A DNA stretch of 64,000 nt from Luidia sarsii. Taxonomy: Eukaryota; Echinodermata; Asteroidea; Paxillosida; Luidiidae. Below the pieces are notes generated by a model. It saw nothing but the letters and a program-made list of their open reading frames with translations, did no database searches and was not told where the DNA came from. Numbering within the stretch: position 1 is the stretch's first letter; every line of letters starts with the position of its first letter. This document shows, in pieces, positions 29,355-43,963 of this stretch. Location of the stretch: contig OX465109.1 in assembly GCA_949987565.1 (NCBI GenBank), positions 14,463,400-14,527,399 of the forward strand, in the 5' to 3' direction. The position numbers and the translations under genes were made by a program.

Positions 29355-29800
29355 TGAGGGGATCCCAAAGACTTTGTTGAAGCCTGCTGTAAATTGTACT
29401 GATGCCGTCGCTAATTACTACGACATAGAGAACATTTTGCTCGAGTACGACTTGGTCACCCTGCCCGCGCTGGCCAGGTCGATCCGCAATCAGTATATGA
29501 GCCGAATGACTATCCTCTACGAGCGCGTTCTCCGGCACCGCAAAATCGTAACGGACAAATCCGACGCCCTGTGGAACATCAACCTAAATACCCCTGCCCG
29601 CAGCATGAAGGGGATCCTGATGCTGTTCGAGGACCCAGCAGCCGCCTTCGCGCGAGACACCGAAGCCTTCTACAACCCGAAAATCGAAAAGGTCGAAATG
29701 ACGGTAGAGGGCATACCCAATCAGCTATAGGCTACTTGCAGGGGATTCGCGCCCATCAGCAATGGGACGAAAGTAGTGTGTTGATTAGCATAACAATAGA
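29305..29800 (+). pseudogene. Capsid-like protein, C-terminal fragment
   Basis: The plus-strand frame includes VLRHRKIVTDKSDALWNINL, NTPARSMKGILMLFEDPAAA and FYNPKIEKVEMTVEGIPNQL, stop at 29730. A one-base shift allows GIRAHQQWDES to 29774. The MKGILMLFEDP...FYNPKI...VEGxPNQ pattern is what I associate with the C-terminal jelly roll of Polinton/adintovirus-type major capsid proteins; I cannot confirm it without a profile search. Both ends are missing and the remainder of the gene is decayed. Confidence 0.45.
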
Positions 29801-29924
29801 GTTGATTAGCATAACAAGCGGATTAGAAAATCAACGGATCTAATTTGGGTACTTTTGCATACATTAGCATGACAAAGGTGTTAATTTGCGTGTATTAGCA
29901 TACATTAGCATAACAAGAGGGGAC

Positions 29925-30065
29925 CTGGAAATCTCTATACGGGACAATGGGAGGACCTGAAAGTCTCTACAGGACAATGGAAGACCTAGAAATCTCTACA
30001 GGTCAATAGAAGACCTGGAAGTCTCTACGGGACAATTGGGGACCTACGAGTTCCGATCGGCCAGA
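29925..30065. repeat. 30-bp iteron array in the virus-like locus
   Basis: Four to five degenerate units of the type GGACCTGGAAATCTCTACAG-GGACAATGGA. The core GACCTGnAnRTCTCTAYnGG is the same as in the 45-bp arrays of the palindromic element (38605-38870, 41580-41845). Further single units lie at 31500-31650. Confidence 0.7.
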
Positions 30066-30829
30066 GCAAAGGGCGTCGATGGTCAGAATAATGGTGGAAC
30101 TAAGAGGCCCGATTGGACGGAACAAAGGGTGTTAATGAGGAGTCCGAGAGTGATTGATAGAACGGGACAAGGATGGTGATAATGTGGAGAAGACAAAATG
30201 GCGGACCTATGAAATCTAATTGCAAAACGCGTACATCAATCATAGGGAAACTATGAGGGAAACAATTAAAAGAGTGGATCAAAACACATACGTCGATCAT
30301 TCGAAAAATTCTAAGGAAACAAAAAGGCTGACCCCCAAAGCCCCTTGCGCGTGAGTGGGACGGGAAAACAAAATGGCGGATTGATAAATCCAAACCTGAC
30401 AGCGTGTTTGTCAATCATATACGGGGAGAATTTGATGGACTAATAAACTCAGTCGGAGGGAGCGTGAGTAGGGACGGAAAAAAACCATGGTGGACTTATG
30501 AACCCTGATTGCAAAACACATAATCAATCATTCCGGGGAAAAAATAAGAAAACAAAATGGCTGACTCCCCCCCCCCCCAAAAAAAAAAGTATTAAAAAAA
30601 CCTGAACGCGGAAAGTGCGTGTGTGCCGGATGGGGAAATCGAGAAAATCCAAATCGGACAGCGCGTACGTCAATATTATACGGGGAAAATGTTGGACCTA
30701 TGAACTCAATCGGCCGGAGTATGAGTTGAACGGGGAAAAAATCGGCATACATAAGACAGAATGAGATGTGAGGGGACGATCTGAATGATGATGCATGGAC
30801 GATGCATGTTAAAAATATATAGTACGATT

Positions 30830-30845
30830 AGTCCTGAAAAGGACT
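30830..30845 (-). promoter_or_regulatory. Histone-like stem-loop variant
   Basis: On the minus strand AGTCCTTTTCAGGACT forms a perfect 6-bp stem with loop TTTC. It differs from the histone 3' stem-loop consensus only in the outer G:C pairs. It lies about 110 nt beyond the stop of the decayed 164-codon-family gene. Confidence 0.4.
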
Positions 30846-30912
30846 GTTTTGATTGAGTACTCACGGAAAAGCCACGGTCTGGCAGACGAAGGTGTAAGCA
30901 GACAATTTGAAA

Positions 30913-30928
30913 CACACTGAAAAGGGCC
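30913..30928 (-). promoter_or_regulatory. Decayed histone-type stem-loop
   Basis: Minus strand GGCCCTTTTCAGTGTG: the left half and loop match GGCCCTTTTCAGGGCC of the intact copy at 42469-42484, while the right arm is mutated. It lies about 30 nt after the stop at 30958-30960, the same spacing as in the two palindrome copies. Confidence 0.5.
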
Positions 30929-30957
30929 GTTCGGTTTGAATACTGATATGGAGCGCT

Positions 30958-31420
30958 TCAGACGAACAATCCCAAGCCCATCTTCGTCATGCAGAGGAGT
31001 GTGTGGATATCCATGTGGAATGGATTCTTGCTGAGCCTGTATCTTCTGCGGACTTCTTGTTTAGGAGTTTGGAGGTCCTCCGAGATGGTTCCCTTGAGCA
31101 GCAGATGTGTGGCTAGATGGTTGATGCGATGCTCGGGGTGGCAGTAGGGATACCGGTCCTCCGGCCGTTTCCTCCTCGTACTGCTGAATAAGATCGAGCA
31201 GACGGCTTTCTGAAAAGGCTACCTCATGGCTTCCCGTGGGTTGATGGTACAGCAGGGAAGCCTCGTCTTGGGTAATGCTCAAGTCATTACGATGGAGAAA
31301 GTTGGCCTCATTATTAATTTTGCTCCTAAGTTTTTCCAGATGTTGGAGGGGAACTCCTCGGCGATTTTCTGCATGAACATCATTACTCTTCCTCGAAAAC
31401 TCGTCATAGATGCCGGCCAT
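30958..31420 (-). pseudogene. Diverged copy of the 164-codon duplicated-domain gene, frameshifted
   Basis: MAGIYDEFSRKSNDVHAENR... to about 31150 is followed after a frameshift by RYPYCHPEHRINHLATHLLL and KGTISEDLQTPKQEVRRRYR, then a C-terminus CMTKMGLGLFV and a TGA at 30960. These align with LHLEELRSKIN, RISEQEARRRYRKFKNPF and CLRKMGCGKFI of the palindrome gene. The first half also keeps LEKLRSKIN and FSESRLLDLIQQYEEET. One frameshift near 31150 inactivates it. Confidence 0.6.
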
Positions 31421-31489
31421 GGGGGTATAGGTTGGGTTGGGGGACGAAAAGTTTGTGGGGAACGCCTTATTTGATTTGTCCTCGATGAA

Positions 31490-31660
31490 GTTTGTGTGAG
31501 GGGACCTTATTTGATGTTAATGGTCTGAATAATGAGGGGACCCGTAAGCCCCTTTAGGTCAATGGTGGACCCACGAGTCTTAATTGGATTAGTGCTATTG
31601 GTCGGAATAATGGGGGGACCTGAAAGTCTCTACTGGACGGGTCGTGCAAAGTGTGTCGAT
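31490..31660. repeat. Degenerate iteron units
   Basis: GGGGACCTTATTTGATGTTAATGG, GAGGGGACCCGTAAGCC and GGGGGGACCTGAAAGTCTCT resemble the iteron core of 29925-30065 at low identity. Confidence 0.4.
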
Positions 31661-31878
31661 GAGGGTGCCACCGTCAAGGGTTGGGAGGAGGGAGACGCTA
31701 CACCCACGCTAGAACATTGACGGCCATTTGCTCATTTCTAAAGATTTTTGTTTCAAATGACAATCCAAAAATATACATCAGAATAAATATACGTGACACA
31801 TTAATGCTTCGTTATTTCATGTTCTCTTTTTTATTATCGTTTATTATCGTCTTATCCTAAGTAACATTATCTTCCAAA

Positions 31879-32187
31879 TCAGGGACTAGCTGACTCGTCT
31901 TCTTTAGATGACTCGTCCTCTTCTTCATATGACTCGTCACCTTCTTCCTCTGGTTCGAGTTCCCCATCACTCTCTTCTGAATCATCGTCATCAACCGTCA
32001 ATTCTGTACCGTGGCTTTCTGTTCCCGAATTTTGGCATCTGTGCTTTTTAAATCCGGGTTGATAATAATCTACGTAAGAATCGCCAAACCGAAATGGCCC
32101 ATCTTCATGATCATCGTCAATATCATCATTTTCTGATTCATCTGCAGCATGTGTGCATGCTACATGTATTTGAAGGTTATGTAACAC
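31879..32187 (-). CDS. Acidic protein with zinc-finger remnant, virus-like locus copy
   Basis: A 102-codon frame with NLQIHVACTHAADESEN (remains of a C2H2 finger, compare NLRRHEENAHVAGES in the palindrome), DDIDDDHEDG, YYQPGFKKHRCQNSGTESHG (basic patch) and a long Asp/Glu/Ser-rich tail ending DESSKEDESASP. It is shorter than the palindrome relatives (177-204 codons), lacking their C-terminal helical domain. An acidic tail after a finger suggests a nuclear transcription-type or DNA-mimic factor, but the function is unknown. Confidence 0.5.
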   Translation of the reverse strand: MLHNLQIHVACTHAADESENDDIDDDHEDGPFRFGDSYVDYYQPGFKKHRCQNSGTESHGTELTVDDDDSEESDGELEPEEEGDESYEEEDESSKEDESASP

Positions 32188-36459: not shown

Positions 36460-37118
36460 TGGAGAGGAGAGAGTAGTAGCATTTGCCAGCCGAAAATTAA
36501 GTAAGGCTGAGAGAAACTACTGTGTCACCCGACAATAATTGCTTGCGGTGGTGGTTTATCTCAGATATTTCCGACAGTACATGTACTTGTATGGGCAAAA
36601 GGTGACCGTAAGAACCGATCACTCGGCACTCAAGTGGTTGTTGAATTTCAAAGACCCCGAGGGCCAGCTTGCTAGGTGGCTGCAGGTCGTAGCGGAGTAT
36701 GACCTAACCATCCAACACAGACCGGGTCGAAAGCACTCTAATGCGGACAGTCTGTCCAGAAGGTTCTGCAAGCAGTGTGGACATGGGGATGGTCACGACG
36801 GCGAAGAAGACGATGAGGTACCGAGCACACCAGGTACCCCAGCTAAGGTATCTGGCAGTTTGGCTACCCCAAACAATGAACCAGCAGTGAGAAGTGTTAT
36901 CGCGCAGCCCTTGGTCAGCCTTGAGGCGCTCAGAGAAGCCCAGTTAGCCGATCCGACCATGGGTTGGTTGCTTGCTGCTAAGGAGGCTGGAAGTGAACGT
37001 CCTGATTGGAAGGATGTTTCGATAATGAGTCCAGCCAGTAAGACGTATTGGTCCTACTGGAACCAGTTGTCCGTTCATGATGGTGTTCTGCACCAAAGAT
37101 ATGAGTCGGATGATGGAA
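36400..37118 (+). pseudogene. Gypsy RNase H and linker, with internal stop
   Basis: In the frame after 36400, [16 protein letters not shown] is the first RNase H block, then [13 protein letters not shown], a TAA at about 36536 in place of Gln, LLAVVVYLRYFRQY, VRTDHSALKWLLNF and HRPGRKHSNADSLSRR. The linker continues to YESDDGK, where the palindromic element has inserted after ATGGAA (37113-37118). Confidence 0.88.
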
Positions 37119-37140
37119 AGTAGTATGTTGTGACCGATCT

Positions 37141-37265
37141 GCACCCCTTTTGGTGGTGCAAGCAAGTGGTGCAGGTGGTGCAGGTGGTGCGGGTGATGCG
37201 GGTGGTGCGGGTGATGCGGGTGGTGCGGGTGGTGCGGATGTGCGGGTGGTGATGTACGTGGTGCG
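37141..37265. repeat. Left subterminal GGTGGTGCG repeat
   Basis: About ten units of GGTGGTGCGGGTGATGCG-type sequence just inside the left end. The mirror copy lies at 43205-43330 with a somewhat different unit count. Confidence 0.85.
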
Positions 37266-37279
37266 GTAATGGTGGACGC

Positions 37280-37950
37280 ATAGGCCTACGGCTATTTTGT
37301 ATTGCATTGTTGCCTTTTTAAAATTATTATTATTCTTAATTTTTTTTTCCCCCCAGCGTTTTCTAACAAACAAACAAACAAACAAACCACACCCAAACAG
37401 ACAAAGGAACAAAAAAGTCAAACAACAGCTACGAATTGCGACAAGGGAGTTGGGTTAAAAAACGGTCGAAACGGGTGCCTAAAACCAACCGGAACTCACC
37501 AGAACATTCCTTATGTGGTCAACGGGCGATTTAGAGTTTGAAGTATTTTATTCAACTCTTCTACACGTGTAACAACAATAACAAAATGGCCAAAACAGGC
37601 ATGTGTGTGATGGGGCAGGTCTTGACAAATGTAAATCTGACAATGCAATGGATTAGTACAGTCTCGGATATAGGTTCTCACAAGATATAAATGAATTACA
37701 TGTTATAACAACAACAATTATAAAAAGAATTCAGAACTCAATGATTCATTAAAATCAAACAACTTTCAAAATCACAAGTCAAGAAAAAAGAAAAAAAGAA
37801 AAAAAGAAGAAGAATGGATTAGTGCAGTCTCGGGTATAGGCTCTCACAAGATATAAATGAATTACATGTAATAACAACAACAACAATTATAAAAAGAATT
37901 CAGAACTAATGATTCATTAAAAGGTGACGTCATCGTTCTTTAAGAAAATG
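37280..37950. other. Non-coding arm segment (mirror 42530-43200)
   Basis: AT-rich with CAAA microsatellite, a direct duplication of ATAGGCTCTCACAAGATATA-type sequence (37670-37720 and 37846-37895) and AAAAAGAAAAAAAG runs. No gene is seen. Close to the coding region lies TGACGTCA (37925-37932; 42530-42537 in the other arm), a CRE/ATF consensus. Confidence 0.6.
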
Positions 37951-37954
37951 TGGT

Positions 37955-37970
37955 GGCCCTGGAAAGGGCC
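37955..37970 (-). promoter_or_regulatory. Histone-type 3' stem-loop, left arm
   Basis: Minus strand GGCCCTTTCCAGGGCC: 6-bp stem with loop TTCC, one change (U9 to C) from the metazoan consensus GGYYYUUYUHARRRCC. The flanks CCAAAC and ACCACA resemble histone flanks. It lies 27 nt after the stop of the gene at 37998-38492. Confidence 0.7.
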
Positions 37971-37997
37971 GTTTGGGTTGGTTAAAGATTTATCCGG

Positions 37998-38492
37998 CTA
38001 GATGAACTTTCCACAGCCCATTTTCCTGAGACAGAGGAACATCTCCAGGTCGATAAACGGATTCTTGAATTTCCGGTAACGTCGGCGGGCTTCTTGCTCC
38101 GAGATGCGAGGATCTTGCCTGATGATGCCTCGTTGGAGCAGACGGGTGGCCAGGAGATTTATTTTGCTCCGCAACTCTTCGAGGTGGAGATACGGGTAGC
38201 GGTTTTCCGTTTCGTCTTCGTACCTCCACACAAGGTCGAAGAGCCGGGCAGGGGAAAATACCTCGTCTGTGTTTTTTATGGGTTGACTGTAGCGGAAGCA
38301 AGCCTCCTCTGCTGAAATAAAAAGATGATGTGTGACGAGCCCCTCATATTGAAGTAACCCCACAAGGGTGTTGATCTTCCGTCTGATTTGCTCGAGGTGG
38401 GTGCATGAATGTCCGTCCTCAATATCTTGCTCATACTTCTCCAAAAGGTATTGGAGACGGTTCTGGTGGGAAAATTCTTCGTAGTTGTTCAT
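37998..38492 (-). CDS. 164-codon novel protein with internal duplication, left-arm copy
   Basis: A complete frame starting MNNYEEFSHQNRLQYLLEKY and ending CLRKMGCGKFI. Two repeats of about 70 residues align: FSHQNRLQYLLEKYEQDIED with FSPARLFDLVWRYEDETENR, HLEQIRRKIN with HLEELRSKIN, and FISAEEACFRYSQPIKN with RISEQEARRRYRKFKNP. It is rich in charged residues and predicted helical, without signal peptide or membrane segment. It differs from the right-arm copy at one codon (KFKNP vs KFKKP). I do not recognise the family; the fold may be a helical tandem repeat. A histone-type stem-loop follows at 37955-37970. Confidence 0.75.
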   Translation of the reverse strand: MNNYEEFSHQNRLQYLLEKYEQDIEDGHSCTHLEQIRRKINTLVGLLQYEGLVTHHLFISAEEACFRYSQPIKNTDEVFSPARLFDLVWRYEDETENRYPYLHLEELRSKINLLATRLLQRGIIRQDPRISEQEARRRYRKFKNPFIDLEMFLCLRKMGCGKFI

Positions 38493-38604
38493 ATTGTAGG
38501 CCGGTGCAGTTGTGTTCAGTCCGAAGATGGAACGCGTAATGATCGTCTGCGAGGGTGACAGGGTACGTTGAATCGGTGCTAGGTGAGTTGTTACTACAAG
38601 TCCG

Positions 38605-38875
38605 AGTCAAGGGGACATTAGTCTCGATCGAACAAAACAAAGAGGGCTTAATCAGGGACCTGCACGTCTCTATTGGAAAGAACGATGAGGGGGTAATGAG
38701 CGACCTGCACGTCTCTATCGGACCAAACAAAGAGGGGGATAATCAGGGACCTACACGCCTCTATTGGACAGAACGACGAGGGGTAATGCGGGGCCCGCAA
38801 ATCTCTCTCGAACAGGACAAAGAGGGATCTGTGAGTGTCTATCGGACAGAACAAAGAGGGAATCTAGAAGGCTGA
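38605..38875. repeat. 45-bp iteron array, left arm
   Basis: Five to six units (core GACCTGCACGTCTCTATTGG, spacer ACAGAACAAAGAGGGGGTAA). It lies directly upstream of the 164-codon gene, between it and the acidic gene. The core matches the 29925-30065 array. Confidence 0.85.
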
Positions 38876-39054
38876 ATGTTATTGATGTCGGATCAATGCC
38901 GGCCACGAACAGTGTCAGTAATTCTAATGAAGGTATATTGTCCTATTGACGTATTTGAGCGCGGTCGTGGAAGTCTTCAAGAGACTTGACTGCTTGCAGT
39001 CGGCAACGTACTCATCGTCATCTGTGCATCCATCTAAAAACATCAAACAGGAAT

Positions 39055-39255
39055 CGGGACCTGCTCATTGTACTCATCCACCTGCTCATGTTGCTCATCG
39101 ACCTGCTCATTGTACTCGTCCACCTGCTCATTTTGCTCATTCACTTGCTCATTTTGCTCATTCACGTACTCATTTTGCTCATTGCCTACTCATTTTGCTC
39201 ATGTTGCTCATTTCCTGCTCATTTTGCTCATCGACCTGCTCATTTTGCTCTCATA
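39055..39255. repeat. GCTCATTTT/GTACTC repeat, left arm
   Basis: Units of TGCTCATTTTGCTCATTCAC type and 12-21 bp periods; mirrored at 41190-41385. All frames are open and Ser/Cys/His-rich, so the ORFs there are spurious. Confidence 0.8.
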
Positions 39256-39286
39256 AAGAAATAGGATTCTCTAATCCTTACCATCT

Positions 39287-39901
39287 CTAACTTTTTCTTC
39301 CGCTTTCATCATGTTGGAACAAGCCGAGAAATTCGGCATGGTGTTTAACCATTACCCTGTCCAGGGACTTGTCAACTTCCATGCCTTTATCTAGTTTTTC
39401 TTTGAGATCTGCGAGAATAACTTGGTGGGTTTCATTTTCTTCAAGTTGCAAGTAACTTGACAGGAAATCCTTGTAGTTTTTAAAGAAATTTCTCTTGACT
39501 GCCCAGCAGGTTTTCCTATTGGCTTTGTCTTCGGCTTCATCTTCGTCCATACCATTGTCGATGTACTTCTCGTGTTTCTCATTCCACATATCTTTGGTTG
39601 CCTCTTTGGCCTCTTTCAACCAGTCTTGGTAAGCGATATTATCTTCCAATTCAGAGCTGGACCCATCTTCTTCCGACAAGTCATCGTCAGTTTCTTCCTC
39701 TGATTCGTCATCACTCTCCTCCAAATCGTCACCATCATCCTTAGATTCAGTCCTGTCACCATCAATTGTAGATTCAGTTCCGCTACTGTCTGTTTCCGAA
39801 TCCTGACATCTACGCCTTTTAAATCCCGGTTCATAATCTTCTACGTTAGAATTGGCTGATCGAATTGTTCTTATGTTACGATCATCGTCAATGTCGTCCA
39901 T
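39287..39901 (-). CDS. Acidic helical protein (zinc-finger gene relative), left-arm copy, 204 codons
   Basis: MDDIDDDRNIRTIRSANSNV, then a basic patch EPGFKRRRCQDSETDS, an Asp/Glu/Ser-rich central region (DDLSEEDGSSSELEDN) and a helical C-terminal domain with WLKEAKEATKDMWNEKHEKY and HHAEFLGLFQHDESGRKS. Just upstream in another frame a C2H2 finger half (SYSRRYNLRRHEENAHVAGE) shows that the original gene carried a zinc finger, lost by a one-base shift before the ATG. KRRR could be a nuclear signal. Function unknown. This is the intact copy of the pair. Confidence 0.65.
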   Translation of the reverse strand: MDDIDDDRNIRTIRSANSNVEDYEPGFKRRRCQDSETDSSGTESTIDGDRTESKDDGDDLEESDDESEEETDDDLSEEDGSSSELEDNIAYQDWLKEAKEATKDMWNEKHEKYIDNGMDEDEAEDKANRKTCWAVKRNFFKNYKDFLSSYLQLEENETHQVILADLKEKLDKGMEVDKSLDRVMVKHHAEFLGLFQHDESGRKS

Positions 39902-39969
39902 TTCGATTCACCCGCAACGTGTGCATTTTCTTCATGTCTTCGAAGGTTATATCGCCGACTATAGCTTTT

Positions 39970-40469
39970 GGGGGAAAACCCATAAAATAATCGGGAGCGA
40001 GAATTTCTCTTTTCCCCGGGCATTCCCCCATTTTACTCATTTCTACTCATGTCTACTTATGTCTGTGCTCATGTCTGCTCATGTCTGCTCATGTCTGCTC
40101 ATGTCTGCTCATGTCTGCTCATGTTTGCTCATTTTTTGCTCATTTTTACTCATGTCTGCTCATTTCTGCTCATGTCTGCTCATTTCTACTCATGTCTGCT
40201 CATTTCTACTCATGTCTGCTCATTTCTACTCATGTTTGTGCTCATTTCTGCTCATTTCTGCTCATTTCTGCTCATTTCTACTCATTTCTGCTCATTTCTG
40301 CTCATTTCTGCTCATTTCTGCTCATTTCACCTGAATGAGGACAGAAAACAGGACATTTATATATTGCCCAATTTTAAACATGTCTTCCCATTTGGAGATC
40401 GACACTCCACGAGTAAACATCATGAATACTATTTCTGGGCTAAAACGCTATGCTTGTCATCGCTGCAGC
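39970..40469. other. Loop of the palindrome with GCTCAT repeats
   Basis: Unique 500-bp centre. 40030-40330 is a run of about 27 degenerate 11-bp units (TGTCTGCTCAT / TTCTGCTCATT), giving long Ser/Cys/His/Leu-rich spurious frames. The right end contains ACGCTATGCTTGTCATCGCT, coding the first half of the zinc finger (RYACHRCSK) that continues into the right arm. Confidence 0.7.
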
Positions 40470-40530
40470 AAAAGCTATAGTCGGTGATATAACCTTCGAA
40501 GACATGAAGAAAATGCACACGTTGCGGGTG
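40440..40530 (+). pseudogene. C2H2 zinc finger exon, broken
   Basis: KRYACHRCSKSYSR, a TGA where the left arm has CGA, then YNLRRHEENAHVAGESK: CX2CX12HX4H, a classical C2H2 finger. It runs into the acidic ORF at 40538 in a different frame. The first half is present only at this end because it lies in the loop. Confidence 0.6.
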
Positions 40531-40537
40531 AATCGAA

Positions 40538-41071
40538 ATGGACGACATTGACGATGATCGTAACATAAGAACAATTCGATCAGCCAATTCTAACGTAGAA
40601 GATTATGAACCGGGATTTAAAAGGCGTAGATGTCAGGATTCGGAAACAGACAGTAGCGGAACTGAATCTACAATTGATGGTGACGGGACTGAATCTAAGG
40701 ATGATGGTGACGATTTGGAGGAGAGTGATGACGAATCAGAGGAAGAAACTGACGATGACTTGTCGGAAGAAGATGGGTCCAGCTCTGAATTGGAAGATAA
40801 TATCGCTTACCAAGACTGGTTGAAAGAGGCCAAAGAGGCAACCAAAGATATGTGGAATGAGAAACACGAGAAGTACATCGACAATGGTATGGACGAAGAT
40901 GAAGCCGAAGACAAAGCCAATAGGAAAACCTGCTGGGCAGTCAAGAGAATCTTCTTTGACAACTACAAGGATTTCCTGTCAAGTTACTTGCATCTTGAAG
41001 AAAATGAAACCCACCAAGTTATTCTCGCAGATCTCAAAGAAAAACTAGATAAAGGCATGGAAGTTGACTAG
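40538..41071 (+). pseudogene. Acidic helical protein, right-arm copy, truncated by a stop
   Basis: Same protein as 39287-39901 up to KLDKGMEVD, then TAG (41069-41071) where the other arm has AAG (Lys). The remaining reading frame (RVMVKHHAEFLGLFQHDESG) is intact after the stop. The difference shows the arms are evolving separately after insertion. Confidence 0.65.
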
Positions 41072-41189
41072 GCCCTGGACAGGGTAATGGTTAAACACCA
41101 TGCCGAATTTCTCGGCTTGTTCCAACATGATGAAAGCGGAAGAAAAAGTTAGAGATGGTAAGGATTAGAGAATCATATTTCTTTATGAG

Positions 41190-41385
41190 AGCAAAATGAG
41201 CAGGTCGATGAGCAAAATGAGCAGGAAATGAGCAACATGAGCAAAATGAGTAGGAAATGAGCAAAATGAGTACGTGAATGAGCAAAATGAGCAAGTGAAT
41301 GAGCAAAATGAGCAGGTGGACGAGTACAATGAGCAGGTCGATGAGCAACATGAGCAGGTGGATGAGTACAATGAGCAGGTCCCGA
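41190..41385. repeat. GCTCATTTT repeat, right arm (mirror)
   Basis: Reverse complement of 39055-39255, read here as AATGAGCAAAATGAGCAGGT units. Confidence 0.8.
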
Positions 41386-41574
41386 TTCCTGTTTGATGTT
41401 TTTAGATGGATGCACAGATGACGATGAGTACGTTGCCGACTGCAAGCAGTCAAGTCTCTTGAAGACTTCCACGACCGCGCTCAAATACGTCAATAGGACA
41501 ATATACCTTCATTAGAATTACTGACACTGTTCGTGGCCGGCATTGATCCGACATCAATAACATTCAGCCTTCTA

Positions 41575-41845
41575 GATTCCCTCTTTGTTCTGTCCGATAG
41601 ACACTCACAGATCCCTCTTTGTCCTGTCCGAGAGAGATTTGCGGGCCCCGCATTACCCCTCGTCGTTCTGTCCAATAGAGGCGTGTAGGTCCCTGATTAT
41701 CCCCCTCTTTGTTTGGTCCGATAGAGACGTGCAGGTCGCTCATTACCCCCTCATCGTTCTTTCCAATAGAGACGTGCAGGTCCCTGATTAAGCCCTCTTT
41801 GTTTTGTTCGATCGAGACTAATGTCCCCTTGACTCGGACTTGTAG
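41575..41845. repeat. 45-bp iteron array, right arm (mirror)
   Basis: Mirror of 38605-38875; core on the minus strand GACCTGCACGTCTCTATTGG. It lies upstream of the 164-codon gene at 41947. Confidence 0.85.
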
Positions 41846-41946
41846 TAACAACTCACCTAGCACCGATTCAACGTACCCTGTCACCCTCGCAGACGATCAT
41901 TACGCGTTCCATCTTCGGACTGAACACAACTGCACCGGCCTACAAT

Positions 41947-42441
41947 ATGAACAACTACGAAGAATTTTCCCACCAGAACCGTCTCCAATACCTTTTGGAG
42001 AAGTATGAGCAAGATATTGAGGACGGACATTCATGCACCCACCTCGAGCAAATCAGACGGAAGATCAACACCCTTGTGGGGTTACTTCAATATGAGGGGC
42101 TCGTCACACATCATCTTTTTATTTCAGCAGAGGAGGCTTGCTTCCGCTACAGTCAACCCATAAAAAACACAGACGAGGTATTTTCCCCTGCCCGGCTCTT
42201 CGACCTTGTGTGGAGGTACGAAGACGAAACGGAAAACCGCTACCCGTATCTCCACCTCGAAGAGTTGCGGAGCAAAATAAATCTCCTGGCCACCCGTCTG
42301 CTCCAACGAGGCATCATCAGGCAAGATCCTCGCATCTCGGAGCAAGAAGCCCGCCGACGTTACCGGAAATTCAAGAAACCGTTTATCGACCTGGAGATGT
42401 TCCTCTGTCTCAGGAAAATGGGCTGTGGAAAGTTCATCTAG
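41947..42441 (+). CDS. 164-codon novel protein with internal duplication, right-arm copy
   Basis: Intact frame from MNNYEEFSHQNRLQYLLEKY to CLRKMGCGKFI, stop TAG at 42439-42441. It is identical to the left-arm product apart from Lys for Asn in RYRKFKKPF. Two about 70-residue repeats are visible, each with FSxxRLxxL, YExxxE, HLExxRxKIN and ISExEAxxRY landmarks. No intron is needed. The perfect histone-type stem-loop 28 nt after the stop suggests a replication-linked, non-polyadenylated mRNA. Preservation of both copies suggests that the gene was functional when the element inserted or that insertion is recent. Confidence 0.78.
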   Translation: MNNYEEFSHQNRLQYLLEKYEQDIEDGHSCTHLEQIRRKINTLVGLLQYEGLVTHHLFISAEEACFRYSQPIKNTDEVFSPARLFDLVWRYEDETENRYPYLHLEELRSKINLLATRLLQRGIIRQDPRISEQEARRRYRKFKKPFIDLEMFLCLRKMGCGKFI

Positions 42442-42468
42442 CCGGATAAATCTTTAACCAACCCAAAC

Positions 42469-42484
42469 GGCCCTTTTCAGGGCC
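42469..42484 (+). terminator. Histone-type 3' stem-loop, right arm (perfect consensus)
   Basis: GGCCCTTTTCAGGGCC fits every position of the metazoan histone consensus GGYYYUUYUHARRRCC, with flanks CCAAAC before and ACCACA after (histones: AAA...ACCCA). In histone mRNAs, SLBP binds this hairpin and U7 snRNP directs cleavage just downstream. A purine-rich histone downstream element is not obvious here. Confidence 0.75.
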
Positions 42485-43204
42485 ACCACATTTTCTTCCT
42501 CATCGCCCGTTTGCCCATGTAAAGAACGATGACGTCACCTTTTAATGAATCATTAGTTCTGAATTCTTTTTATAATTGTTGTTGTTGTTATTACATGTAA
42601 TTCATTTATATCTTGTGAGAGCCTATACCCGAGACTGCACTAATCCATTCTTCTTCTTTTTTTCTTTTTTTCTTTTTTCTTGACTTGTGATTTTGAAAGT
42701 TGTTTGATTTTGATGAATCATTGAGTTCTGAATTCTTTTTATAATTGTTGTTGTTATAACATGTAATTCATTTATATCTTGTGAGAACCTATATCCGAGA
42801 CTGTACTAATCCATTGCATTGTCAGATATACATTTGTCAAGACCTGCCCCATCACACACATGCCTGTTTTGGCCATTTTGTTATTGTTGTTACACGTGTA
42901 GAAGAGTTGAATAAAATACTTCAAACTCTAAATCGCCCGTTGACCACATAAGGAATGTTCTGGTGAGTTCCGGTTGGTTTTAGGCACCCGTTTCGCGATT
43001 CGACCGTTATTTAACCCAACTCCCTTGTCGCAATTCGTAGCTGTTGTTTGACTTTTTTGTTCCTTTGTCTGTTTGGGTGTGGTTTGTTTGTTTGTTTGTT
43101 TGTTAGAAAACGCTGGGGGAAAACAAAAAATAATAATAATAATTTTAAAAAGGCAACAATGCAATACAAAATAGCCGTAGGCCTATGCGTCCACCATTAC
43201 CGCA

Positions 43205-43330
43205 CCACGTACATCACCACCCGCACATCCGCACCACCCGCACCAACCGCACCACCCGCACATCCGCACCACCCGCATCACCCGCACCACCTGCACCACC
43301 TGCACCACCTGCACCACCTGCTTGCACCAC
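43205..43330. repeat. Right subterminal CGCACCACC repeat
   Basis: Mirror of 37141-37265 with CATCCGCACCACCCGCACCA units and CTGCACCAC units nearest the end. Confidence 0.85.
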
Positions 43331-43370
43331 CAAAAGGGGTGCAGATCGGTCACAACATACTACTATGGAA

Positions 43371-43963
43371 AGTCTGCAAGGTTGCGTGTTGTTGTACCTG
43401 ATAGGTACAGGCGAGAATTTATTGACGAGCTGCATGGTGGCCAGGTAAGTGGCCACCTAGGTCTGAAGAAGACCCTGGCGAGGGTCCGGCAGCGGTGTTT
43501 CTGGTCCGGTTTGACCGCCGATGTTCGGTCCTGTCTTCGGCTGTGTGATAAATGTGCTCGGAGAAAGTCCCCTCCGAAGAAACGGATTGCACCATTGCAG
43601 CAGTACCATGTAGGTGGAACCCTCGAGAGGGTTGCCATGGACCTCATGGGTCCCTTGCCTAAAACGGAGGCAGGGAATCAATGGATTCTGGTCGTTGGTG
43701 ATTATGCAACACGTTGGTTGGAAGCCTATGCCATCCCAGATGCAAAAGCCGAAACCGTGGCGGCAAAGTTTGTCACGAAATTTGTCTGTAGGTATGGATT
43801 GCCACGAGAAGTCCACTCCGATCAAGGCACGAATTTCGAATCCATGGTGTTCGGAGAAATGTGCCGTATTTTGGGTATAAGCAAAACAAGAACAACTGCT
43901 TATAATCCCAAATCAGATGGGTTTCAACAAAACCCTTATCAACATTGTGGCTTCGATGATTGA
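43371..43963 (+). pseudogene. Gypsy integrase, N-terminal and catalytic part, catalytic Glu deleted
   Basis: ELHGGQVSGHLGLKKTLARV and CLRLCDKCARRK form the HHCC zinc-binding domain. MDLMGPLPKTEAGNQWILVV has the first catalytic Asp, and EVHSDQGTNFESMVFGEM the second. At the third position the sequence reads KSDG directly joined to QQNPY/FNKTL: a short deletion removes the residues around the expected VERFN, including the catalytic Glu, and shifts the frame at about 43920. Confidence 0.88.

What the first reader, a model, noticed from the sequence alone, without database searches (positions are those of the whole stretch)
37119..43364. Palindromic Polinton-like element carrying duplicated novel genes, with a perfect 6-bp target duplication in a gypsy integrase
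Seen: 12-bp exact outer ends AGTAGTATGTTG / CAACATACTACT, arms of about 2.85 kb that are reverse complements, a 500-bp loop, and ATGGAA on both sides. Deleting the element plus one ATGGAA restores the gypsy frame. Known: Polintons/Mavericks and related adintoviruses make 6-bp duplications with AG...CT ends and use protein-primed linear replication, which can give inverted dimers. Inference: this is a satellite or defective inverted-dimer form of such an element, carrying only two accessory genes per arm. I know of no described element with this layout.
Basis: partly seen in the sequence, partly recalled or inferred. Interest (0 to 1): 0.95.

Follow-up and report, generated by a model that had tools for sequence, protein, structure and literature searches.

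The report
Palindromic Polinton derivative with duplicated genes
This is a real jumping-DNA element, one of a large family in this genome, built as two near-identical mirror-image halves; it has the ends of a virus-like transposon (a Polinton) but none of its enzymes, and it appears to spread by borrowing those enzymes and by copying itself through a folded-back form.

Summary
In detail: 37119-43364 is a 6,246-bp inverted repeat (arms about 2.9 kb, 498-nt asymmetric centre), ends AGTAGT...ACTACT, ATGGAA on both sides, inside a gypsy integrase. It belongs to a large family: protein B of its arms matches at least 154 places in the genome, and 70 of 87 close copies listed form head-to-head inverted pairs. 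Of 18 copies with both ends, 17 have 6-7-bp flanking repeats. Its ~500-bp terminal repeat is shared (about 90%) with an enzyme-bearing Polinton on C2; gene A has a homologue beside Polinton genes on C23; related copies carry PolB and ATPase scraps. So it is a non-autonomous Polinton derivative in palindromic, snap-back form. In gene B, arms are identical in 11 of 15 two-armed elements; three relatives carry one, two and three copies of the same centre in alternating mirror arrangement, as repeated fold-back would leave. Gene B evolves under purifying selection (dN/dS about 0.4). The window copy is decayed, and its "loop" reflects a one-sided deletion. Trans-mobilisation and snap-back replication are inferred. 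My limited literature searches listed no such family.

The parts
37119..43364 (.). whole palindromic element, 6,246 bp
37113..37118 (+). target-site duplication ATGGAA, left copy
43365..43370 (+). target-site duplication ATGGAA, right copy
37119..37584 (+). left terminal inverted repeat shared with the C2 Polinton (about 90%), with 9-bp GTGGTGCGG-type tandem repeats
42878..43364 (-). right terminal inverted repeat, mirror of the left
37998..38492 (-). gene A, left copy, 165 codons, open; homologue beside Polinton genes on C23
41947..42441 (+). gene A, right copy, 165 codons, open
38621..38826 (.). 45-bp tandem repeats, left arm
41613..41818 (.). 45-bp tandem repeats, right arm
38990..39054 (-). 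65-bp fragment of the last ORF at the right end of the C2 Polinton, left arm
41385..41449 (+). the same 65-bp Polinton gene fragment, right arm
39058..39250 (.). 21-bp TGCTCAT-type tandem repeats, left arm
41208..41380 (.). 21-bp ATGAGCA-type tandem repeats, right arm
39287..39907 (-). gene B, left copy: open 206-aa frame that lacks about 44 N-terminal codons (part of the C2H2 finger) of intact copies
40335..41149 (+). gene B, right copy: full length but broken (one base short of intact copies, and an in-frame stop)
39970..40034 (.). remnant of the palindrome centre; the left half of its surroundings is deleted in this copy
40036..40328 (.). 10-bp tandem repeats (CTCATTTCTG type) between the centre and right gene B
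36539..37123 (+). interrupted gypsy retrotransposon, RNase H side (site of the insertion)
43364..43963 (+). interrupted gypsy retrotransposon, integrase H2C2 + rve side

Best explanation
The element is a non-autonomous, palindromic (inverted-dimer) derivative of a Polinton. SHOWN: it has the terminal repeat of a Polinton of the same genome and a 6-bp target duplication; no core Polinton gene was found in it beyond scraps in relatives; it belongs to a family of dozens of copies, most of the close ones palindromic; the two arms are often identical within an element; three related elements carry one, two and three copies of one centre segment in mirror arrangement. INFERRED: Polinton protein-primed PolB, starting at the terminal repeats, copies a displaced single strand; a strand that folds back at or near the centre primes its own copying. 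The product is self-complementary, has an origin at both ends, and has identical arms again; a fold-back slightly beside the old centre leaves nested centres. The Polinton integrase then inserts the linear product, making the 6-bp duplication. Gene B (C2H2 finger, acidic stretch, helical C-terminal part) and perhaps gene A are kept because they help the element or its helper; regulation through the repeats around the centre is my guess.
For: Ends and duplications: (17 of 18 elements with 6-7-bp repeats). TIR shared with the C2 Polinton: (window copy 90%; the matching loci L021-L034 89-97%). C2 Polinton genes: PolB (DNA_pol_B_2 1.1e-5), protease (Peptidase_C5 4.4e-4), PC4 6.5e-14, rve 5.2e-6 with chromodomain 1.2e-8. 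Gene A homologue on C23 beside ATPase (Pox_A32 2.2e-6), protease-like and capsid-like ORFs; collinear with the L038-class arm. PolB C-terminal scraps in 14 of 20 sequences tested (window element and L021-L039), ATPase scrap in L037. Palindromic layout: (41 inverted pairs among 150 typed hits; 70 of 87 hits of at least 400 bits paired; no close pair in another orientation). Arms: (0 differences in gene B in 11 of 15 two-armed elements; L022 and L037 at least 6 and 5 away from every other element). Nested centres: (one copy in L038, two in L039, three in L058). Selection on B: dN/dS 0.38-0.44 between subfamilies.
Against: No replication intermediate, transcript or transposition was observed. Over about 1.9 kb the own other arm is the nearest relative in only 6 of 13 elements, ties in 4 and is not the nearest in 3 (L021, L032, L036); in gene B the right arm of the window copy is nearer to other elements than to its own left arm. 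Arm identity could also come from gene conversion after insertion. The direction of the centre series (growth by fold-back or shrinkage by deletion between short direct repeats) is not proven. The left TIR of the C2 Polinton lacks its outer part, so its own duplication could not be checked. Gene B was not found in an enzyme-bearing Polinton. Helpers for the end types of L035 and L037 were not identified: the genome search did not complete. PolB, protease and rve scores are under Pfam's curated cut-offs, and capsid ORFs were recognised from recall, not by Pfam.
Confidence: 0.8

Rival explanations
1. An independent fold-back transposon with its own unrecognised transposase (gene A or B), which only resembles Polintons at its ends.
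For: Genes A and B have no convincing Pfam or fold match beyond the zinc finger; B is under purifying selection.
Against: About 500 bp of TIR shared with an enzyme-bearing Polinton, Polinton gene scraps in the family, a gene A homologue beside Polinton genes, 6-bp duplications as given for Polintons (PMC10045372, passage). Elements such as L021 and L023-L027 have no gene A match yet are bracketed by duplications in most cases.
Confidence: 0.08
2. Assembly artefact: mirrored or collapsed sequence produced false palindromes.
For: No raw reads could be examined; one copy lies near a contig end (C18:3958-9589).
Against: 41 inverted pairs on many contigs; 17 of 18 elements have their own flanking duplication with different flanks; arms of some copies differ (window copy 12 of 1,781 sites).
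Confidence: 0.03
3. The palindromes arose on the chromosome (head-to-head insertions or a local inverted duplication), with arms kept alike by gene conversion; replication has no part in it.
For: Arm conversion is known from chromosomal palindromes (recalled). In the window copy 4 private changes are in both arms and 10 in one arm.
Against: One target duplication brackets each whole palindrome; the same centre segment is found in 13 of 37 sequences searched, at different insertion sites; the centres examined lack TIR sequence.
Confidence: 0.12
4. A hairpin-telomere replicon: the centre is a T-shaped hairpin as in parvoviruses, used by a Rep-like system.
For: The centre of the main class folds into a stem with two small ears (z about -8 for L035, L023 and L037).
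Against: Most of that score is the palindromic stem: the energy of the 31-nt tip alone is reached by 104 of 2,000 dinucleotide shuffles. The window's own centre is not unusual (z -1.3), the L038 and L039 centres have no such tip, and no Rep-like gene was recognised.
Confidence: 0.05

Closest known systems
[quoted passage not shown]
   Same: AG...CT ends (that Polintons end so is recalled), long TIRs, 6-bp duplications; an enzyme-bearing member with the same TIR lies in the same genome; shared gene A and gene scraps
   Different: No PolB, integrase, protease, ATPase or capsid gene found; 3.0-9.5 kb in the 18 elements measured instead of 15-20 kb; palindromic along most or all of its length
Palindromic defective genomes of adenoviruses and other protein-primed linear replicons (recalled; one search found no paper)
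   Same: Two copies of one genome end in inverted orientation, which keeps an origin at both termini and drops the core genes
   Different: Here they are integrated, numerous in an animal-size genome, and keep two open genes, one of them under purifying selection
Foldback-type transposons such as Galileo (start of one abstract seen; the rest recalled)
   Same: Very long inverted repeats with internal tandem repeats
   Different: Galileo belongs to the P-element superfamily; this element has Polinton ends and gene scraps
Virophages and Polinton-like satellite viruses (recalled)
   Same: Dependence on a larger virus-like element is the likely life style here too
   Different: Virophages carry their own capsid genes; none was found here

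Membership tests
Polinton/Maverick | own protein-primed PolB | tested here: not met
   (query: a 596-aa PolB piece): only a C-terminal scrap in 14 of 20 sequences, none in the window element
Polinton/Maverick | RVE-type integrase | tested here: not met
   (query: a 246-aa piece of the C2 integrase): no match in 20 sequences; ORF lists show none inside the elements
Polinton/Maverick | 6-bp target-site duplication | tested here: met
   exactly 6 bp in 15 of 18, 7 bp in 2, none in 1; '6 bp for Polinton' in PMC10045372 (passage)
Polinton/Maverick | long TIRs with AG...CT termini | tested here: met
   the family rule is recalled
Polinton/Maverick | capsid genes, protease and packaging ATPase | tested here: not met
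   (queries are pieces from C2 and C23): only a 38-aa ATPase scrap in L037
Non-autonomous derivative of a Polinton | shares TIRs with an enzyme-bearing element of the same genome | tested here: met
   for the window's end type; not tested for the L035 and L037 end types
Non-autonomous derivative of a Polinton | has been mobile | tested here: met
   many dispersed copies with different target duplications
Non-autonomous derivative of a Polinton | is moved by the Polinton integrase in trans | not testable with these tools
   needs an experiment
Adintovirus | adintovirus-type phylogeny and gene set of the helper | not tested
   no tree of the helper genes was made
Parvovirus-like hairpin replicon | conserved T-shaped hairpin beyond chance | tested here: not met
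   104 of 2,000 shuffles reach the energy of the tip; the L038 and L039 centres differ

The most novel reading that the evidence does not exclude
A lineage of self-complementary Polinton satellites. They multiply as snap-back molecules that re-equalise their two arms, re-dimerise at shifting centres (one, two, three nested centres), swap ends between Polinton families (three end types around nearly one core), carry a conserved zinc-finger regulator and may be packaged in the helper's capsids. This would be an endogenised, long-lived counterpart of palindromic defective-interfering genomes.
Probability: 0.35. Interest if true: 0.88.

Novelty: new variant of a known kind. Interest (0 to 1): 0.74.

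Why it matters
How Polintons replicate is known mainly from models based on sequence (my understanding). A family that leaves snap-back products in the genome, with arms that are often identical and centres that are visibly nested, would give a genomic record of how protein-primed Polinton DNA is copied. It also points to satellites that live on Polintons in an animal-size genome, and to conserved accessory genes whose role can be tested.

Tried and rejected
T-shaped hairpin at the centre: looked striking, but the tip is not unusual against shuffles and is absent from the L038 and L039 centres; dropped. Function of B from its fold: mean pLDDT 65.8, best viral Foldseek E 0.11, PDB matches are common helical arrangements plus the zinc finger; no function read from it. 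Function of A: poor model (mean pLDDT 54.7, 4 sequences), so not searched; a Trans_reg_C hit under the cut-off was not relied on. Relatives of B, A and the capsid-like ORF in IMG/VR: none confirmed. Homologues of B (26) and A (3) were found only in unnamed contigs, all but one (32.7 kb) of at most 2.4 kb. Gene B in an enzyme-bearing Polinton: looked at single-arm loci on C14 and C2; upstream lie a retrotransposon, a zinc-finger ORF and another transposon-like ORF, no core Polinton gene. The totals of private changes were not used as printed: 354 of its 365 'both-arm' changes come from L037, whose outer module is not homologous; without L037 it is 11 in both arms and 17 in one arm.
Full report
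WHAT IS THERE. The 6,246-bp element at 37119-43364 has two arms that are reverse complements (97.5% over 2,899 columns; pieces listed), ends AGTAGTATGTTG/CAACATACTACT and ATGGAA on each side. It sits between the RNase H part (36539-37123) and the H2C2/rve integrase part (43364-43963) of a gypsy element, with the duplicated hexamer in the same codon phase on both sides. Each arm holds gene A (165 codons, open in both arms) and gene B. In less damaged relatives B is 272 aa with an N-terminal C2H2 finger (zf-C2H2 2.6e-4, under Pfam's cut-off, over it in homologue P0022). In the window the left B lacks about 44 N-terminal codons, and the right B is one base short and carries an in-frame stop. Against L035 the window copy lacks about 424 bp just left of the centre, which explains the 498-nt asymmetric loop.

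A FAMILY. The window lies in an unnamed 470.9-Mb genome. The first 501 bp of the element gave 46 matches (a lower bound; some elements give several rows). Protein B gave 154 matches (a lower bound). Of the 20 genome loci, 13 are palindromes through the centre (L021, L023-L027, L031, L032, L035-L039), L022 has 2.5-kb arms, L028, L029, L033 and L034 have shorter arms, and L030 and L040 showed no inverted match (L040 reads N in part). Eighteen elements, the window's included, have both ends in hand: 15 have an exact 6-bp direct repeat, L026 has 7, L027 has 7 within a run of C, L025 has none.

ORIGIN. An element at about C2:5465370-5481281 shares the TIR (window copy about 90%; matching loci L021-L034 89-97%). 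It was read in separate pieces. They encode a PolB (DNA_pol_B_2, 1.1e-5), an adenain-like protease (Peptidase_C5, 4.4e-4), a WW+PC4 protein (PC4 6.5e-14) and an integrase (rve 5.2e-6, chromodomain 1.2e-8); PolB, protease and rve are under Pfam's curated cut-offs. The capsid ORF was recognised from recall; Pfam gave nothing. Its left TIR has lost the outer part. Its last right-end ORF begins with the sequence that the palindromes carry as a 65-bp fragment. On C23, between 7228500 and 7234505, lie a capsid-like ORF (recall; no Pfam match), a protease-like ORF (Peptidase_C57 0.0038, under cut-off), an ATPase (Pox_A32 2.2e-6, over cut-off), a PC4-like ORF (my reading; no Pfam match), and then a 47% homologue of gene A. 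The TIR of that element was not identified; that A lies near its end is inferred from its collinearity with the L038-class arm. Fourteen of 20 sequences tested (the window element and L021-L039) carry a PolB C-terminal scrap, and L037 a 38-aa ATPase scrap; pieces of integrase, capsid and protease did not match. Hence the palindromes are Polinton derivatives. Three further end types besides the window's occur (L035/L036 AGTAGTAGGTGA, L037 AGTAGTATAGTA, L038 AGTAGTGTGTTG); the first two surround nearly the same core as the window's type (gene B 99-100% identical), so ends have been exchanged. Gene B was not found in an enzyme-bearing Polinton.

HOW THE PALINDROME IS KEPT. In gene B the two arms are identical in 11 of 15 two-armed elements; the others differ by 1 (L021), 3 (L027), 3 (L032) and 9 (window) sites. 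L022 and L037 are at least 6 and 5 sites away from every other element, yet each has identical arms. Over about 1.9 kb in 13 elements, the own other arm is the nearest relative in 6 (window, L022, L025, L026, L027, L037), ties with another element in 4 (L023, L024, L031, L035) and is not the nearest in 3 (L021, L032, L036). So the comparison favours shared arm history, clearly for L022 and L037, but most elements are too alike to tell. The centres say more. L038 has one copy of a 65-nt centre segment; L039 has two, in opposite orientation and joined through a 28-nt spacer, with 3,931-nt exact arms; a third relative, L058 on C12, has three, symmetric about the middle one. This 1-2-3 series is what repeated fold-back beside or at the centre would leave. 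Deletion between the short direct repeats so formed could run the series backwards, so its direction is the simpler reading, not a proof. Protein-primed PolB is described for Polintons (PMC6431247, section 10), and a single-strand intermediate was proposed for casposons on the model of Polintons (PMC4046053, passages). I infer that snap-back copying on such a strand resets arm identity.

GENES. B shows dN/dS of 0.38-0.44 between subfamilies with dS 0.46-0.77 (7 sequences), so it has been functional for long. Its model has a confident finger and a helical C-terminal region but no informative fold match. It starts beside 10-bp repeats at the centre, which makes self-regulation an attractive guess, no more. 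Selection on A was not measured.

LITERATURE. Ten library searches listed no paper whose title or shown abstract describes a palindromic Polinton derivative; only the top rows of the longer lists were seen, and the Polinton discovery papers and Repbase reports were not read. Passages were seen in PMC10045372 ('6 bp for Polinton'), PMC2836005, PMC4028283, PMC4046053, PMC5718144 and PMC6431247 (of the last also section 10). Palindromic adenovirus defective genomes are recalled, not checked (one search found no paper).

VERDICT. What is added: it is a large family, a helper type with the same ends is present in the same genome, arms are often re-equalised, centres are nested in a 1-2-3 series, and gene B is under selection.

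Noticed in passing
window 29783-32180 (- strand): A second, older remnant of the same kind (L038/L052-type arm, about 73-96% DNA identity in pieces): gene A remains at 30958-31420 and a gene B fragment at 31858-32180; no mirror half was seen in the window.
   Followed up: partly
G000 C21:14553397-14598519: Three copies of a palindromic element 5.05-5.08 kb long within 45 kb, perhaps a segmental repeat that carries one insertion along.
   Followed up: no
L028, L033, L034 (C12, C4, C6): Shorter elements (3.0-4.2 kb) with the same ends and target duplications but one gene B match each, i.e. deleted forms that are still bracketed by duplications.
   Followed up: partly
L021-class elements: Arms lack a gene A match and have instead TIR plus a PolB C-terminal scrap, as at the left end of the C2 Polinton, so the outer module seems interchangeable.
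   Followed up: partly
L051 2792-7000 (C2): About 4 kb of a long tandem array next to a diverged gene B, open in several frames as a repeat.
   Followed up: no
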